Below are positions 39,564 to 46,866 of a DNA stretch of 64,000 nucleotides, piece by piece (positions within the stretch are counted from its first letter, which is position 1; every line of letters begins with the position of its first letter). A program made the position numbers and the translations under genes. Origin of the DNA: Sulfurovum sp. (lineage in GTDB: Bacteria; Campylobacterota; Campylobacteria; Campylobacterales; Sulfurovaceae); NCBI GenBank assembly GCA_027068435.1, contig JAMOTA010000013.1, forward strand, positions 1-64,000, written 5' to 3'. Under the pieces are notes generated by a model. It was not told the origin of the DNA. It made no database searches and saw only the letters and a list, made by a program, of their open reading frames with translations.

Positions 39564-41378
39564 TTGAGCGAAAATCTTATCGGTTACATAGATGACCAAG
39601 GCAATATATTAGATACACAAACTGCAGGTGAAAACTGCACAGCTACTCCCATAGAGTATGACAATAGTGAGCAAGCATTAGAGATAGTTCGTCACTCTAC
39701 AGCACACCTTATGGCACAAGCTATTACAGAGCTTTACCCTAATTCACAGTTCTTTGTAGGACCTGTTGTTGATGAAGGGTTTTACTATGACTTTAGAATA
39801 GATGAGCAGATAGGTGAGAATGACCTTAAAGGCATCGAAAAAAAGATGAAAGAACTCATCAAGAAAAAGTATAAAATAGAGAAGTATGAGATAAGTAAAG
39901 AAGAAGCTTTAGTGAAGTTTGCTAATGATGATTTGAAACTAAAAGTGATGGAGCGTATTACTGATGATACACTCTCTATCTACAAGCAAGGGGATTTTGA
40001 AGACCTTTGTCGTGGGCCTCATGTTCCAGCACTTCGTTTTCTTCATAACTTTAAGCTTACTCGCGTTGCTGGGGCTTACCTCGGTGGAGATGAAAAAGCA
40101 GAGATGCTTACACGTATTTATGGTATAGCTTTTGCAGATAAAGAGTCTCTTAAAGCACACATGACTATGCTTGAAGAGGCAAAGAAACGTGATCACCGTA
40201 AAATAGGTGCAGAGATGAACCTCTTTATGTTTGATGAAGAGTCAGGAGCAGGACTTCCTTTCTGGATGCCACAAGGTGCAAAGTTGAGAGCAAAACTTGA
40301 AGATATTCTTCATAAAGCACACCGTGTAAGAGGGTATGAACCTGTACGTGGTCCAGAGATTCTTAAAGCAGATATGTGGAGAACATCAGGTCACTATGCG
40401 TGTTATGGTGAAAATATGTACCTTACAACTATAGATGAACAAGAGTATGGGATTAAGCCCATGAACTGTATTGGGCATATTCAAATCTTTAAACAGACAC
40501 AAAAGAGTTACCGTGACTTGCCTGTAAAGTTTTATGAATATGGTGTAGTCCATAGACATGAAAAGTCAGGGGTGCTTCATGGCTTACTTCGTGTAAGAGA
40601 GTTTACACAAGATGATGCACATATCTTCTGTGCTCCAGACCAGATAGCTACTGAAGTTATAGATGTAGTTGAGTTTGTTGATTCTGTGATGAAACTATTT
40701 GGTTTTGAGTACACTATGGAAGTAGCAACTAAACCAGAAAAAGCCATCGGTGAAGATGCAGTTTGGGAGTTAGCCACACAAGGTCTTAAAGATGCCTTGA
40801 CTGAAAACAAGTTACCTTTTACCATAGATGAAGGTGGGGGAGCATTTTATGGTCCTAAGATAGATGTAAAAATCACTGATGCACTTGGGCGTAAATGGCA
40901 ATGTGGTACAATACAAGTAGATTTTAACTTACCAGAGAGATTTGGTGTTGAGTATGTAGCTGAAGACAATACACGTAAACAGCCTGTTATGATACACCGT
41001 GCTATTTTAGGATCATTTGAAAGATTTATTGCTATTTTGGTTGAGCATTATGCAGGAGAGTTTCCATTCTTCTTAGCACCGACGCAAGTTATCTTTGTTC
41101 CTATCTCAGAAAGTCATGTAGCATATGCTAAAGCACTTAAGAAAACATTGATGCTAGAGGGGATAGACTCAGAGGTTTATGATAAAAATGATTCTTTGAA
41201 CAAACGTATAAGAACTGCAGAGAAGCAGAGAGTACCGTATGTAGTGATTGTTGGAGATGAAGAGGTTCAAGGAAATTCTGTTGCGATAAGAAATAGAAGA
41301 ACTAGAGAACAGTATAATCTTACTCAAGACGAATTTATGGTAGAATTAACACAACAACTTCAAGAAGGAAAAATTTGA
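39564..41378 (+). CDS. thrS: Threonyl-tRNA synthetase (TTG start)
   Basis: [47 protein letters not shown] motifs. Confidence 0.97.
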
Positions 41379-41926
41379 GTAGACACAACGACAGAAACAA
41401 CAGAGGAAGAAAGAAGCCAGATGATACCATCATGAATGATGCTATTAGAATTAATGAACTTAGAGTTCTTGGCGATGATGGGGAACAATTTGGTATTATA
41501 TCTCGTAGTGAAGCGATGAGTATAGCAAATGAAAAAGGTTTGGATCTTGTGCTTATGTCACCAGATGCAAAGCCTCCTGTTGCAAAGATCATGGACTACG
41601 GTAAATACAAGTATGAGCTTGAGAAAAAGAAAAAAGAAGCAAGAAAGAACCAAAAGAAGATAGAAGTAAAAGAGGTAAAGTTCTCTTGTAAGATAGCAGA
41701 AAATGACATTAACTATAAAGTCAAACACGCTAGAGAGTTCTTAGAGCAAGGAAAGCATGTAAAACTTCGTGTCTTCCTTAGAGGACGTGAAATGGCAAAC
41801 CCTGAATGGGGAGTAGATGTACTTAACCGTATATGGCCAATGCTAGAAGATGTAGGTAACCTAGAGAGTAGAGCTAGTCAAGAAGGTCGTTACATTAACA
41901 TGTACGTAACACCACTTAAAAAATAA
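41375..41926 (+). CDS. infC: Translation initiation factor IF-3 (TTG start)
   Basis: [46 protein letters not shown]. Confidence 0.96.
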
Positions 41927-41935
41927 TATCTACAA

Positions 41936-41953
41936 TGTGGGCTTCCGCCCACA
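41936..41953 (+). terminator. Hairpin TGTGGGC-TTCC-GCCCACA after infC
   Basis: Perfect 7-bp GC-rich stem and tetraloop immediately after infC. Confidence 0.7.
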
Positions 41954-42055
41954 AAACACCCCCTCCCTTCAAAAAATTAGTAACATCATTTTCATTTAAA
42001 TTATCAAAAGCTTTATGCTATAATCTTAACCATAAAATAAAAGTTGGAAATGGCA

Positions 42056-43057
42056 ATGATAAAAGATATTGAAATAGTTAAATACAAGGGTTTTAATAAT
42101 CTAAAACTAGAGAATCTAAGTCAAGTAAATATTATTAGTGGTGAAAATAATATTGGGAAGACAGCTTTATTGGAAGCTCTTTTTATTTATGACAATATAT
42201 TATCCTCTGATTCGTATTATATTTTTGAACCTTTTTCATTAAATCCATTTTTATTTATTGCGAAAACAAGAGATATTCAAAAAAATAGAATAAAAAATTA
42301 TTTAGAAAATATTGATTTTATAATATATACTAATAAATTAAAATTAAATATAAAATACAAAGCCAGATATAAGTTTAGTAAAGAAGAAAAAGAAGAAATA
42401 AAAAGATTTAACCAAGATTATAATGACTATATAGTTGGTTATGCTAATACTAACTTACAAATTTTTCCTATAGATAATATCTCTACTGATAATATAAATA
42501 GTTATAACTATATTGACTCCTCTAAACCAACCAATAAAAGACTTGTAGAGTTATATTCAAATATTCAATCTCAAGGTATTCAATATAAATTTTTAAGATA
42601 TCTAAAACTTTTAGACGGTGACATAGAGTGGATAGAACTACAACTTTTAGATGACGAGATGCTCTTACGTCTTAACCTCAATAACCCTGAACGCTCTCTT
42701 GTCTCTTCAGAACTAGGAGAGGGTACTAATCGTTATATAGAGATACTTTGTACTTTGTTAAGTAGTTCAGATGGTATAGTATTTATAGATGAGATAGAGA
42801 ATGGAATCCACTATACAAAACTATATGATATTTGGAAAGCTATCTTAGAGATAATAGAAAAAGAGAATATTCAACTTTTTGTAACTACTCATAATTTAGA
42901 GTCAATAGAAGCTTTAAATGAGGCTAGTGAAGCTATGAAGTTTGATAAAATATCTTCTGTTAAATTACAAAAAGATAAAGATAATACTATCTATTCTGTA
43001 GTACGAAACTATAGTTCATTTACAGCAACTGTTGATTCTGGAATGGATATAAGATAA
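42056..43057 (+). CDS. AAA ATPase (AAA15/AAA21-like)
   Basis: IKDIEIVKYKGFNNLKLENLSQVNIISGENNIGKTALLEALF (Walker A), DGIVFIDEIENGIHYTKL (Walker B), VTTHNLESIEAL. Confidence 0.85.
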   Translation: MIKDIEIVKYKGFNNLKLENLSQVNIISGENNIGKTALLEALFIYDNILSSDSYYIFEPFSLNPFLFIAKTRDIQKNRIKNYLENIDFIIYTNKLKLNIKYKARYKFSKEEKEEIKRFNQDYNDYIVGYANTNLQIFPIDNISTDNINSYNYIDSSKPTNKRLVELYSNIQSQGIQYKFLRYLKLLDGDIEWIELQLLDDEMLLRLNLNNPERSLVSSELGEGTNRYIEILCTLLSSSDGIVFIDEIENGIHYTKLYDIWKAILEIIEKENIQLFVTTHNLESIEALNEASEAMKFDKISSVKLQKDKDNTIYSVVRNYSSFTATVDSGMDIR

Positions 43058-43725
43058 TGACGGTTTTGTTAGTAGAGGGTATTACAGATGTTAATTTGGT
43101 TCGATATATTTATTCTCAAATAGATAATACATTTGATTTTTATGATTTTGAAGCACCTAAAAAAGGGACTAAATCTAAGGTTATAACTTTTAGCAATAAG
43201 AAAAATGTTAATCTTCAAATTATTAATCTAAAAGGACAAGATAATTTACCCTTTGCTTTAGAAGAACTACTTAACCCTATAGAAGAGAGTATTGACAAAA
43301 CAGCAATTATATCTGATGCCGATAGTGATTTTAAAAATTCCAAAGAACTTGTAGAAAAAGCTATTAAAAATTCTAAAATTAATAGCGATAAATTTACTAT
43401 GTTTTTAACACCAAATAATAGTGACATAGGTAACTTAGAAACCTTACTTCTCTCATCATTAGATAAAGAGTCTATCCCACAACTTCAATGTTTTCAAGCG
43501 TATAAAAAATGTTTAGAAGATAAGATAACAGATATTGAAAAGAGAGCAATAGATAAACATGAAGTAGAGGCATACATAAAATTCTCACAAAACCCTAGAA
43601 ATAGAAATCAGGCTCAATTTTCTTTCATAGATAGTAATGGAGATACGGGGTTATGGGATTTAACTAAAGAAGAGTTTATACCTATTGTAAGATTTGTAGA
43701 ATCAATTCTAAAAGTAAAAAAATAA
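43057..43725 (+). CDS. TOPRIM-like protein (DUF3226-like), partner of the AAA ATPase
   Basis: VLLVEGITDVNLVRYIY (TOPRIM Glu), IISDADSDF (DXD), NSDIGNLETLLL; TAATG overlap with the ATPase gene. Confidence 0.75.
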   Translation: MTVLLVEGITDVNLVRYIYSQIDNTFDFYDFEAPKKGTKSKVITFSNKKNVNLQIINLKGQDNLPFALEELLNPIEESIDKTAIISDADSDFKNSKELVEKAIKNSKINSDKFTMFLTPNNSDIGNLETLLLSSLDKESIPQLQCFQAYKKCLEDKITDIEKRAIDKHEVEAYIKFSQNPRNRNQAQFSFIDSNGDTGLWDLTKEEFIPIVRFVESILKVKK

Positions 43726-43746: not shown

Positions 43747-46700
43747 TTAAAGTTCTCTTACATCCCAATGCAATTTTAATCCCTCATCTGTCATCATAAA
43801 ACCTGAGATGATAATCTCTCCTTCGTGTACCATGGTGTGGTGTTTTTTACATAGAGGGATGAGATTGTATTTGTGGTTTTTGTGAAAGTGGTTTATGTGT
43901 CCTGTATTGTTTGCCTTTTTTTGTTCACTAATATGGTGAACATCTTCAACATTTTTATCACATAATGCACATTTTGCAATGAAAAGATTTTTATGATATT
44001 TACTACTTTTTTGTTGGCTGAGTTTTTTGATGTCACTTTGTGTTTCATTGAGGTTTTCTCTAATAGTTTGAGCCATTTGTAAGAACTCTTTGTCCATGTG
44101 TAGGGACTTGGCAAACTCTAAACCATACAGACTGTCGCCTTTTCCTAGTTGAAGTACTCTGTTATAGATGAGTCTGTCGCTTGTCTCATCATACTGAATG
44201 CCTAAATGTAAAAAGATAAGATGTTTCACATTTTGTAACTGAGGGATATTTCCTAACTGATGTAAGTGTGTAGCAAAGATAAAGGTTGACTTTAAAGAGA
44301 TAAGTTTTAAGATGGCACTTGAAACGATGGCAAGGGCAGACTCTGTCTCTGTACCTTGACTTATCTCATCTCCTAAGACTAAAGAGCATTCATTGGCTCG
44401 GTTAAATATATTTTTAAGTTCCATCATCTCTACTGCAAAAGTAGATAGACCTTTATAAAGGTTGTCTTGTGAAACGATACGGGTAAAGAGTTTGTCGTAA
44501 AGTCCTAAGTGAAGTTCTACAGCAGGCACAAAAAATCCAGATTGAGCTAACACTACAGAGAGACCGACACTCTTCATAAGCGAGGATTTCCCTGAAGAGT
44601 TGATGCCGTAAAGTAGTACCCCTCGTACATCTTCACCCTCACTAGCATTCAAGGTAATATGGTTGTGTGCAGTGTGGTTGTTTTCCCCTAAAAATAGATC
44701 ATTAGGTACATAGATACCCCTCTCGTCATTGGCTTCTATAATAGGATGCCGCAGTGCAACTGCTTCATAAAAGTTTCCCTCTTTTATGTGTGGTCGAGTA
44801 AGGTTCATCTTTTTTGTACACTTTGCATTAGATATCGCTACATCAATGTTAGCGATAAAAGAGATAAGCTTTTCAAGGAGTAGAGAGAACCTATTTTCTA
44901 GCAAATCAAGACTCTCTATGTAGCGTTGTTTGACTAAAGAGACTAGCTTAACTTGAGATGTTTCATAGTTTCTAGTTATCTCTTCAAAAAGTGGTGCTTG
45001 TACTTTTACACTGTTTTTCAGGTATTTGTAGTGAAAGTCCTTAAAAAAGTGATGTTGGTTCTCTATGGTGATAAAAGACTCTTTTAAAGACTTCTCAATG
45101 AGTGTAAATCTGTTCTTGGTTAAACTTAGAAAATACCCTTCACTCTCTAGGTAAGAGACGGTGGTATAGCGTGTAGTTCCTGTAAAGAGTTTCTCTTTTT
45201 CAAAAAGTGACTCTACATGAACAGCAACATTATCCATCTTCTCAATCTCTTTTTGCTGTTTTTTTACGATGGTATCAATAGCAGGGTAGATACCATCTTT
45301 AAAGAGATTATCGTTTATCTGTTCTATCCGAAATCTTGCACAGATATCTAGTTCAAAGGTGTCATTTAGTACTTTTAGCATCTCTTTTGTCTCATCTTGA
45401 AGACGATTTTCTACCTCTAACCCTTCTGCTTGTGCATCGTTTAAAAGGTTTAAAATAGCTTCGAGTGACATGGAGATGTAGGTAAGCTCTACGGGGTGGA
45501 GTTTACGTAGTTTAATCCGTCTAGTGATGCGTTCTAAATCATAAATTTGTTTAAGATGTGTCTCAAAACGGTCAATGTTAGGAAGTAGTAGTTCTGTTAG
45601 GTTGTAACGTGCTTCAAGAAGTGCTTTGTCACAAATAGGGTTAAGAAGTCTCTCTTTAAGTAGGCGTTTTCCAAAGGCCGTAGAGGTTTTGTCTATAAGG
45701 TCTAGCAGCGTTATATCAGAGGGGTCACGAGAGATGACAGAGAGTTGTTCCATCGCGTTATTACCTATATACATATAACGGTTGTTACCCAAAAACTGTG
45801 GTTTATTCATTTTCTCTATGATACTCTCATCATGCTCAATAATAAAGTCAATAAGTATAGCCAAAGACTCAGTAGTGTAAGGGTGACGTTCAAGGTCTAA
45901 AAACTCAATACTTGAGAGAAAAGAGTTGATGTTAAATACATGGGTAAAGAGTTCATTTTGGAACTGTATCTTCATCCGTTTTTTATTTATACTATAGTGT
46001 ATAGACTCTAGTTCAAGGTAGTGTATAAGCCATGCTTGGTCTATCTCTTTACTTTCAAAAGTGACAATCACTTCTGAGGTTGTGTAGGTTTGTAAAAGGT
46101 TAAATGCTTCATCAAGGGCATAGGTTTTGTCATCACGTGTAGAGTGGATTTCATTACAGATGGTTTTACCTGTACTCACATCTATAGCAGCATAACCTAC
46201 AGAGTAGATGCCCATGTTTTCATCTATGATAAGTGATACGATGTTGTTTTCACTGGCTTCATTGAGGTATTCAAAATTTGTACCAGGAGAGACAATGTTA
46301 GAGACATAGCGTTTAATATGAGGCATTTCGCCTTTTTGTTTAACAACAACTATAGTGTACTTTTTTGTGCTAATTAGCCTAGAGAGGTATCTCTCAAGTG
46401 AGACAGCAGGTACCCCAGCTAAAAGAGGGTTATGTATGGAGTTTTCAAGAATAGCTTTGTTTTTTCTTGTAAGTTGTATGTTGAGTAGTTCAGCTATCTC
46501 TTTGGCTTTTCCTATTTTTAACGTATCATTATTTACTTCATATACTTCAAAAAAAGTACCTATCTCCATAAGTATCAACGCATCTTTACCATACTTTTGT
46601 TCAAAATAGTGTTGTAAATCAAAATAGACTTCTGTTAAAAGTTTCTTTTTATTAGAAAGTATTTTGGTAATCTCATCCACGAGCAATGCCTTTTTTGATA

Positions 46701-46866
46701 TTAAGATGGATTTTAACACATTAACGCTTGTAGAGGGTTGTACTATTAAAAGCGTAAAATATGGTTGATTTATAGTAATTTTAGAAACTTTAGGTATAAT
46801 ACCGTCCCATTTTCTATTACATTTAATGTATTGAAAAAATATTTCAAGGGAGTAAGCATATGCCAA
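43747..46866 (-). CDS. MutS-family mismatch-repair protein with C-terminal HNH nuclease (MutS7-like); start uncertain
   Basis: GTFFEVYE (mismatch-binding), [16 protein letters not shown] (Walker A), [15 protein letters not shown]-term [14 protein letters not shown]...[17 protein letters not shown]-track start overlaps rpmI; a downstream start such as GTG at 46719 is plausible. Confidence 0.88.

What the first reader, a model, noticed from the sequence alone, without database searches (positions are those of the whole stretch)
42019..43725. AAA ATPase + TOPRIM-like two-gene module, PARIS/OLD-like candidate defence system
Seen: an AAA ATPase (GENNIGKT, FIDEIENG) and a small protein with TOPRIM-like acidic motifs (LLVEGITD, IISDADSDF, GNLETLLL) are coupled by a TAATG stop/start overlap, follow a dedicated TATAAT box (42019-42024), and sit after an infC terminator hairpin. 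Established: AAA15 + TOPRIM pairings occur in anti-phage systems (PARIS AriA/AriB, OLD-family nucleases, Gabija GajA). Inference: this pair with a DUF3226-like TOPRIM is a defence or DNA/RNA-processing system different in detail from canonical PARIS, which uses a DUF4435 effector.
Basis: partly seen in the sequence, partly recalled or inferred. Interest (0 to 1): 0.75.

Follow-up and report, generated by a model that had tools for sequence, protein, structure and literature searches.

The report
AbiL-type ATPase–TOPRIM phage-defence gene pair
Two overlapping genes inserted between housekeeping genes of a Sulfurovum-like bacterium very probably form a small anti-phage 'self-sacrifice' system of the known AbiL type, in which an ATPase senses infection and a small nuclease acts; it is a new member of a known kind rather than a new kind of system.

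Summary
In detail: a 333-aa ABC/AAA ATPase gene (42056-43057) overlaps a 222-aa gene (43057-43725) by one base (TAATG), behind an extended -10 box TGCTATAAT. The second protein is Pfam DUF3226 (54.8 bits); profile comparison with OLD TOPRIM domains (95.7% probability, at most 0.4% in 30 shuffles) and a confident AlphaFold model with TOPRIM order support the TOPRIM reading. No DUF4435 match, so it is not PARIS. The best named match is AbiL: AbiLi 4.6e-43 over the full length; AbiLii only partial (1.7e-8). The pair is accessory: its 26.2% GC is lower than all 1,180 non-overlapping equal-sized windows tested, eight congeners carry an infC|mutS junction of 31-112 bp without it, and 30 of 32 related TOPRIM loci have the ATPase directly upstream. 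Distant relatives sit between gpA and portal gene in P2-like prophages, the place of P2's old-tin exclusion genes. Most likely the ATPase senses infection, the TOPRIM protein cuts host nucleic acid (RNA favoured), and growth stops. Activity, trigger and substrate are untested. Novelty is modest; more unusual are tandem arrays of 3-4 related pairs with a hypervariable ATPase middle in a relative.

The parts
41936..41953 (+). Hairpin just after infC (GTGGGC-TTCC-GCCCAC core), possible but non-canonical terminator
   Evidence: MFE -12.5 kcal/mol, z -3.39; no U-tract, terminator scan finds none
42016..42024 (+). Extended -10 promoter box TGCTATAAT; weak -35-like TTTAAA at 41995-42000
   Evidence: Among the best-scoring promoter-like sites of the region, 10 of 12, and the only one with TG before the second hexamer; motif not rare in the window
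42056..43057 (+). Gene A: 333-aa ABC/AAA ATPase, AbiLi type (stop included); alternative starts TTG 42044, ATG 42050
   Evidence: Pfam AAA_21 63.4 bits and AAA_15 49.6 bits; PADLOC AbiLi 4.6e-43 over residues 2-333 of the 334-residue query
42140..42163 (+). Walker A (P-loop) GENNIGKT
   Evidence: G30, G35 and K36 in alignment numbering invariant in 13 homologues
42782..42805 (+). Walker B FIDEIENG with catalytic Glu
   Evidence: D246, E247, E249, N250 and G251 in alignment numbering invariant in 13 homologues
43057..43725 (+). Gene B: 222-aa DUF3226 TOPRIM-type putative nuclease, overlapping gene A by one base (TAATG)
   Evidence: Pfam DUF3226 54.8 bits; hhalign to OLD TOPRIM 95.7%; AlphaFold pLDDT 86, pTM 0.85
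43072..43089 (+). TOPRIM motif 1, VEGITD (E7)
   Evidence: E7, G8 and D11 invariant; E7 follows strand 2-6 of the model
43315..43329 (+). TOPRIM motif 2, DADSD (D87, D89)
   Evidence: D87 and D89 invariant in 16 relatives; D87 ends strand 81-87
43429..43452 (+). Family motif GNLETLLL with E128, candidate third metal ligand
   Evidence: G125, E128 and L130 invariant; G125 and E128 kept in phage-contig relatives

Best explanation
An AbiL-type two-gene anti-phage (abortive infection) module, horizontally inserted between infC and a mutS-HNH gene. Proposed mechanism: (1) both genes are made from one promoter and translationally coupled (shown only as sequence layout); (2) the ATPase assembles with the TOPRIM protein and holds it inactive, its divergent middle region (about residues 50-195) recognising an infection signal (inferred); (3) ATP-driven rearrangement frees or activates the TOPRIM protein (inferred by analogy with AriA/AriB); (4) the TOPRIM protein, through E7, D87/D89 and probably E128 with two Mg2+ ions, cuts host nucleic acid, more likely RNA/tRNA than DNA (inferred); (5) growth stops and the phage does not spread (inferred). 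My probabilities: about 0.85 that it is a defence module, 0.65 that the TOPRIM protein is a nuclease effector acting by growth arrest, 0.45 that its substrate is RNA.
For: AbiLi is the top PADLOC match, full length, and also the top match of a phage-contig relative (7.1e-58). TOPRIM homology is supported by Pfam, conserved acids, hhalign with shuffle and ATPase-profile controls, and the predicted topology. Obligate pairing: 30 of 32 loci have the ATPase directly upstream; the others are a broken gene and a contig edge. Accessory behaviour: patchy presence (49 of 397 genomes, 20 of 68 genera), eight empty sites in congeners, lowest GC of the window. Defence context: in a P2-like prophage contig the pair lies between gpA (phrog_91, 5.4e-282) and portal gpQ (phrog_68, 7.6e-174), the hotspot that holds old-tin in P2 (PMC9122126). 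A related PDC-M38 pair in the same genome sits beside a C5 methyltransferase and a HpaII-family restriction enzyme. Literature: F. nucleatum AbiLii is toxic in E. coli (PMC3985639); AriB is a two-metal TOPRIM tRNase (PMC12409363).
Against: No functional data on this pair or close relatives. The immediate neighbours are housekeeping genes, not a defence island. The AbiLii match is partial and weak (58-175 against 8-101 of 125). Foldseek with the better model finds no significant PDB match. F. nucleatum AbiLi did not neutralise AbiLii, which argues against simple inhibition of B by A. RNA as substrate rests on analogy only; OLD and GajA are reported to cut DNA.
Confidence: 0.7

Rival explanations
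1. Same module and same defence role, but the TOPRIM protein is a DNA nuclease (as reported for OLD and GajA) that degrades or nicks invading phage DNA or both genomes.
For: The B profile is closer to OLD TOPRIM (hhalign 95.7%) than to DUF4435/AriB (90.6%). OLD and GajA are reported DNA nucleases (PMC10568477).
Against: The two-gene architecture resembles AriAB, whose TOPRIM protein is a tRNase. No helicase partner like GajB at the locus.
Confidence: 0.3
2. A toxin-antitoxin or addiction module maintained selfishly, without an evolved anti-phage function.
For: A related AbiLii is toxic alone (PMC3985639); AAA plus TOPRIM_OLD pairs are predicted TA pairs in NetFlax (PMC10440598); scattered insertions fit a selfish gene.
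Against: The tested F. nucleatum AbiLi did not neutralise its AbiLii. Distant relatives occupy the P2 exclusion-gene hotspot, and the founder AbiL is a phage-resistance system.
Confidence: 0.1
3. A housekeeping nucleic-acid processing pair (for example rRNA or tRNA maturation, or a chromosome function such as reported for an archaeal OLD-family ATPase).
For: It sits next to thrS-infC; some TOPRIM nucleases such as RNase M5 are maturases; an archaeal OLD-family ATPase is reported to act in the cell cycle (PMC12796447 abstract).
Against: Absent at this site from congeners, with eight short empty junctions. Present in only 49 of 397 phylum genomes, some copies broken. GC far below the surroundings.
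Confidence: 0.04
4. A member of PARIS (AriA/AriB) proper.
For: AAA_21 63.4 bits and AAA_15 49.6 bits pass the ATPase half of the published rule. AriA models match at 1.1e-19.
Against: No DUF4435 match at E up to 1, a required part of the rule. AbiLi scores far better than AriA (146.1 against 69.5 bits).
Confidence: 0.03

Closest known systems
AbiL (AbiLi/AbiLii), Lactococcus abortive infection system; PADLOC AbiL models
   Same: Two-gene ATPase plus TOPRIM_OLD layout; the ATPase matches AbiLi over its whole length (4.6e-43). A Campylobacterota relative of B matches AbiLii at 2.6e-41 (L006).
   Different: B itself matches AbiLii only in part (1.7e-8) and is longer than that 125-position model. 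The L. lactis proteins were not compared directly, and no abortive-infection phenotype is known for this pair.
PDC-M38 (PADLOC candidate class of ATPase plus small protein)
   Same: ATPase 4e-38 and B 2.9e-6. The same genome carries a full PDC-M38 pair on contig C58 (5.3e-286 and 2.1e-84).
   Different: A candidate class; no paper naming it was found in the library.
PARIS (AriA/AriB)
   Same: Separate ATPase and TOPRIM genes; same AAA_15/AAA_21 families; TOPRIM effector with a motif-1 Glu needed for activity (AriB E26, from the paper; here E7).
   Different: The effector is DUF3226, not DUF4435; profile similarity of the two effectors is remote (90.6% hhalign over 61 columns).
OLD nucleases and Gabija GajA
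   Same: ABC ATPase plus TOPRIM; B aligns with OLD TOPRIM domains over motifs 1 and 2.
   Different: OLD and GajA are single chains; here two genes, and no GajB helicase or retron is next to them.
PH0156 of Pyrococcus horikoshii (PDB 2P62)
   Same: Top sequence-profile match among solved structures (E 0.065) and top Foldseek match of the first, low-confidence model (2.5e-4).
   Different: Uncharacterised; not among the listed hits of the higher-confidence model.

Membership tests
AbiL | AbiLi-type ATPase over its full length | tested here: met
   PDLC02336 4.6e-43, residues 2-333 on 1-339 of 340
AbiL | AbiLii-type second protein | tested here: inconclusive
   PDLC02338 1.7e-8, partial 58-175 on 8-101 of 125; relative L006 matches at 2.6e-41
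AbiL | Adjacent, co-directional two-gene operon | tested here: met
   One-base overlap here; 30 of 32 relatives paired
AbiL | Abortive infection phenotype; toxic effector | not testable with these tools
   Only F. nucleatum AbiLii toxicity is known from the literature read (PMC3985639)
PARIS | AAA_15 (32 bits) or AAA_21 (27 bits) ATPase | tested here: met
   49.6 and 63.4 bits; rule in PMC9122126
PARIS | DUF4435 effector (27 bits) | tested here: not met
   No DUF4435 match at E up to 1 for protein B
OLD nuclease class 1 / Gabija GajA | ATPase and TOPRIM in one polypeptide | tested here: not met
   Two ORFs in different frames, 42056-43057 and 43057-43725
Gabija | Adjacent GajB UvrD-like helicase | tested here: not met
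   Neighbours are infC and mutS-HNH
TOPRIM domain superfamily | Glu after strand 1, DxD after strand 3, alternating beta-alpha fold | tested here: met
   Conserved E7, D87, D89; model strands 2-6, 53-57, 81-87, 113-118 with helices between; hhalign to OLD TOPRIM 95.7% against at most 0.4% in shuffles. Foldseek gave no significant TOPRIM match
TOPRIM nuclease | Metal-dependent nucleic-acid cleavage | not testable with these tools
   Needs purified protein

The most novel reading that the evidence does not exclude
AbiL-type ATPases carry a fast-diverging middle region that determines which infection signal is sensed, and bacteria keep and shuffle a repertoire of such modules (single insertions like this one, and tandem arrays of 3-4 pairs as in genome G420), so that the family is a modular, diversifying sensor set with a swappable DUF3226 effector.
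Probability: 0.2. Interest if true: 0.6.

Novelty: new member of a known kind. Interest (0 to 1): 0.36.

Why it matters
AbiL was described in 1999 and, in the papers found here, its mechanism is not worked out. This pair and its relatives supply a defined set of invariant residues (E7, D87, D89, E128 of B; Walker A and B of A), a structural model, and a link to the P2 old-tin hotspot. That makes the question of whether DUF3226 TOPRIM effectors cut tRNA like AriB or DNA like OLD directly testable. For Campylobacterota it marks a patchy, mobile defence module that can be missed when only PARIS or OLD profiles are used.

Tried and rejected
PARIS membership: rejected, no DUF4435. Gabija, retron or single-chain OLD: rejected on gene layout. 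Gene B on plasmids or in the phage record collection: no match; in viral contigs with the B profile: none, whereas the ATPase profile brought 20 phage-contig loci, most with a TOPRIM partner. Foldseek with the first, low-confidence model gave PH0156, but the better model gave no significant match in PDB or viral libraries, so fold search is not used as proof. First hhalign run against OLD was partly circular because small stand-alone proteins of the B kind were in the target set; repeated without them. PHROGs gave nothing for B. No paper mentions DUF3226 or PDC-M38 in the library. A structure of the two-protein complex could not be modelled with the tools.

Full report
What is there. The window lies in a 2.0-Mb draft genome (G000, contig C13). 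The closest named records with a B homologue are a Campylobacterales and a Sulfurovum metagenome-assembled genome, so the host is taken to be Sulfurovum-like. Between infC (41375-41926) and a mutS gene with a C-terminal HNH-like segment (43747-46866, minus strand) sit two overlapping genes on the plus strand. Gene A, best started at ATG 42056, encodes 333 aa with Walker A GENNIGKT, Walker B FIDEIENG and an H-loop TTH. Gene B (43057-43725) encodes 222 aa with VEGITD, DADSD and GNLETLLL. Stop and start overlap as TAATG. An extended -10 box TGCTATAAT (42016-42024) lies 31 bases before the ATG; it is among the best promoter-like sites of the region, although the motif itself is not rare in the window (11 found, 6.1 expected). 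The hairpin after infC folds at -12.5 kcal/mol (z -3.4) but has no U-tract.

What the proteins are. A matches Pfam AAA_21 (63.4 bits) and AAA_15 (49.6 bits); B matches DUF3226 (54.8 bits, cut-off 27) and sub-threshold OLD-like_TOPRIM. Against PADLOC, A's best match is AbiLi (4.6e-43, whole length), then PDC-M38A (4e-38), with AriA at 1.1e-19. B matches AbiLii (1.7e-8, partial) and PDC-M38B (2.9e-6). Across 16 relatives B keeps E7, G8, D11, D87, D89, P119, G125, E128 and others invariant. With phage-contig relatives at 17-26% identity added, E7, G8, G60, D87, P119, G125, L127, E128 and K167 remain invariant. hhalign of the B profile with TOPRIM domains of single-chain OLD proteins gives 95.7% probability (E 9e-9), against 0.7% with the ATPase profile and at most 0.4% in 30 column shuffles. 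This is as strong as DUF4435 against OLD (93.5%). The AlphaFold model built on 15 sequences has pLDDT 86 and pTM 0.85, with strand-helix alternation and E7 and D87 at the ends of strands 1 and 3, as expected for TOPRIM. Foldseek with that model found no significant PDB or viral match. A weaker first model matched PH0156, PDB 2P62. The fold claim therefore rests on motifs, profile comparison and topology, not on fold search.

It is an accessory insertion. In 26 other infC loci of the genus no copy of A or B is seen next to infC where the contig can be read. In eight of them infC is followed by the same mutS-HNH gene after only 31-112 bp. The pair's GC is 26.2%, against 34.6% for the window, lower than all 1,180 equal-sized windows that do not overlap it. 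B relatives occur in 49 of 397 genomes of the phylum, 20 of 68 genera, at many different places, some with internal stops. Of 32 B loci examined, 30 have the ATPase directly upstream on the same strand; the two exceptions are a broken B gene and a contig edge.

Defence association. Twenty viral-contig loci carry relatives of A, most with a DUF3226-like TOPRIM gene next to it. In L045 the pair lies between a gpA-type replication gene (phrog_91, 5.4e-282) and a P2-type portal gene (phrog_68, 7.6e-174). Rousset et al. describe exactly this gpA-gpQ position as a hotspot of anti-phage systems that holds old and tin in P2 (PMC9122126). L045's ATPase also has AbiLi as top match (7.1e-58) and its TOPRIM protein scores 97.2 bits to DUF3226. 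In the window's own genome a more distant PDC-M38 pair (contig C58) is followed by a C5 cytosine methyltransferase and a HpaII-family restriction endonuclease. These are family-level arguments; they do not show that this particular pair is active.

How it probably works. In PARIS, AriA senses a phage protein and releases dimeric AriB, a two-metal TOPRIM nuclease that cuts host tRNA; E26A kills the activity (PMC12409363). In AbiL, the F. nucleatum AbiLii is toxic to E. coli while its AbiLi does not neutralise it (PMC3985639), and AAA plus TOPRIM_OLD pairs are predicted as toxin-antitoxin or defence pairs (PMC10440598). By analogy A is the sensor-scaffold and B the effector. Between the window and its four nearest ATPase relatives the middle region (51-195) is 33-35% identical, while the N-terminal part is 53-67% and the C-terminal part 57-68%. 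This fits, but does not prove, a recognition region under diversifying pressure. Whether B cuts RNA or DNA is open.

Membership. It fails PARIS (no DUF4435) and single-chain OLD/Gabija (two genes, no helicase). For AbiL the ATPase and operon tests are met, the AbiLii test is inconclusive and the phenotype is untested. I therefore call it AbiL-type, not a proven AbiL.

Novelty. Existing profile libraries already place both genes in a defence class, so this is a new member of a known kind. The more surprising observation is in a relative of the same order (G420): arrays of four, four and three ATPase-TOPRIM pairs head to tail, whose ATPases share conserved ends and a hypervariable middle. That belongs to another subclade and was only partly followed.

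Noticed in passing
L122:3678-9957, L123:2518-8536, L124:3016-7631 (genome G420): Tandem arrays of 4, 4 and 3 ATPase-TOPRIM pairs in one genome of the same order; the ATPase first 70 alignment columns are 63-83% identical within an array, the middle is hypervariable, and the TOPRIM partners are 21-79% identical.
   Followed up: partly
window 43747-46866 (minus strand): MutS-family protein of 1039 aa with a C-terminal HNH-like segment, conserved beside infC in many congeners; from memory it resembles the MutS7 (mutS-HNH) lineage of Epsilonproteobacteria, giant viruses and octocoral mitochondria.
   Followed up: no
L129:3318-4882 (own genome, contig C15): A second AbiLi/PDC-M38A-like ATPase whose TOPRIM partner seems deleted: only about a dozen TOPRIM-like codons (MVKIVCEGKSEE) remain, in frame with an LptE-like protein. 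In G285 the close relative of the window pair lies at the same lptE-folC place (L126:6727-8390).
   Followed up: partly
L131:3593-8866 (own genome, contig C58): PDC-M38A (724 aa) and PDC-M38B (291 aa) pair directly followed by a C5 cytosine methyltransferase and a HpaII-family restriction endonuclease.
   Followed up: partly
infC-mutS junction in congeners, L096-L121: The stretch downstream of infC is variable: short junctions, non-coding insertions of 288-488 bp, or quite different genes in different species.
   Followed up: partly
L045, L046, L047, L048 (viral contigs): DUF3226-type ATPase-TOPRIM pairs next to portal or replication genes of P2-like and other temperate phages.
   Followed up: yes
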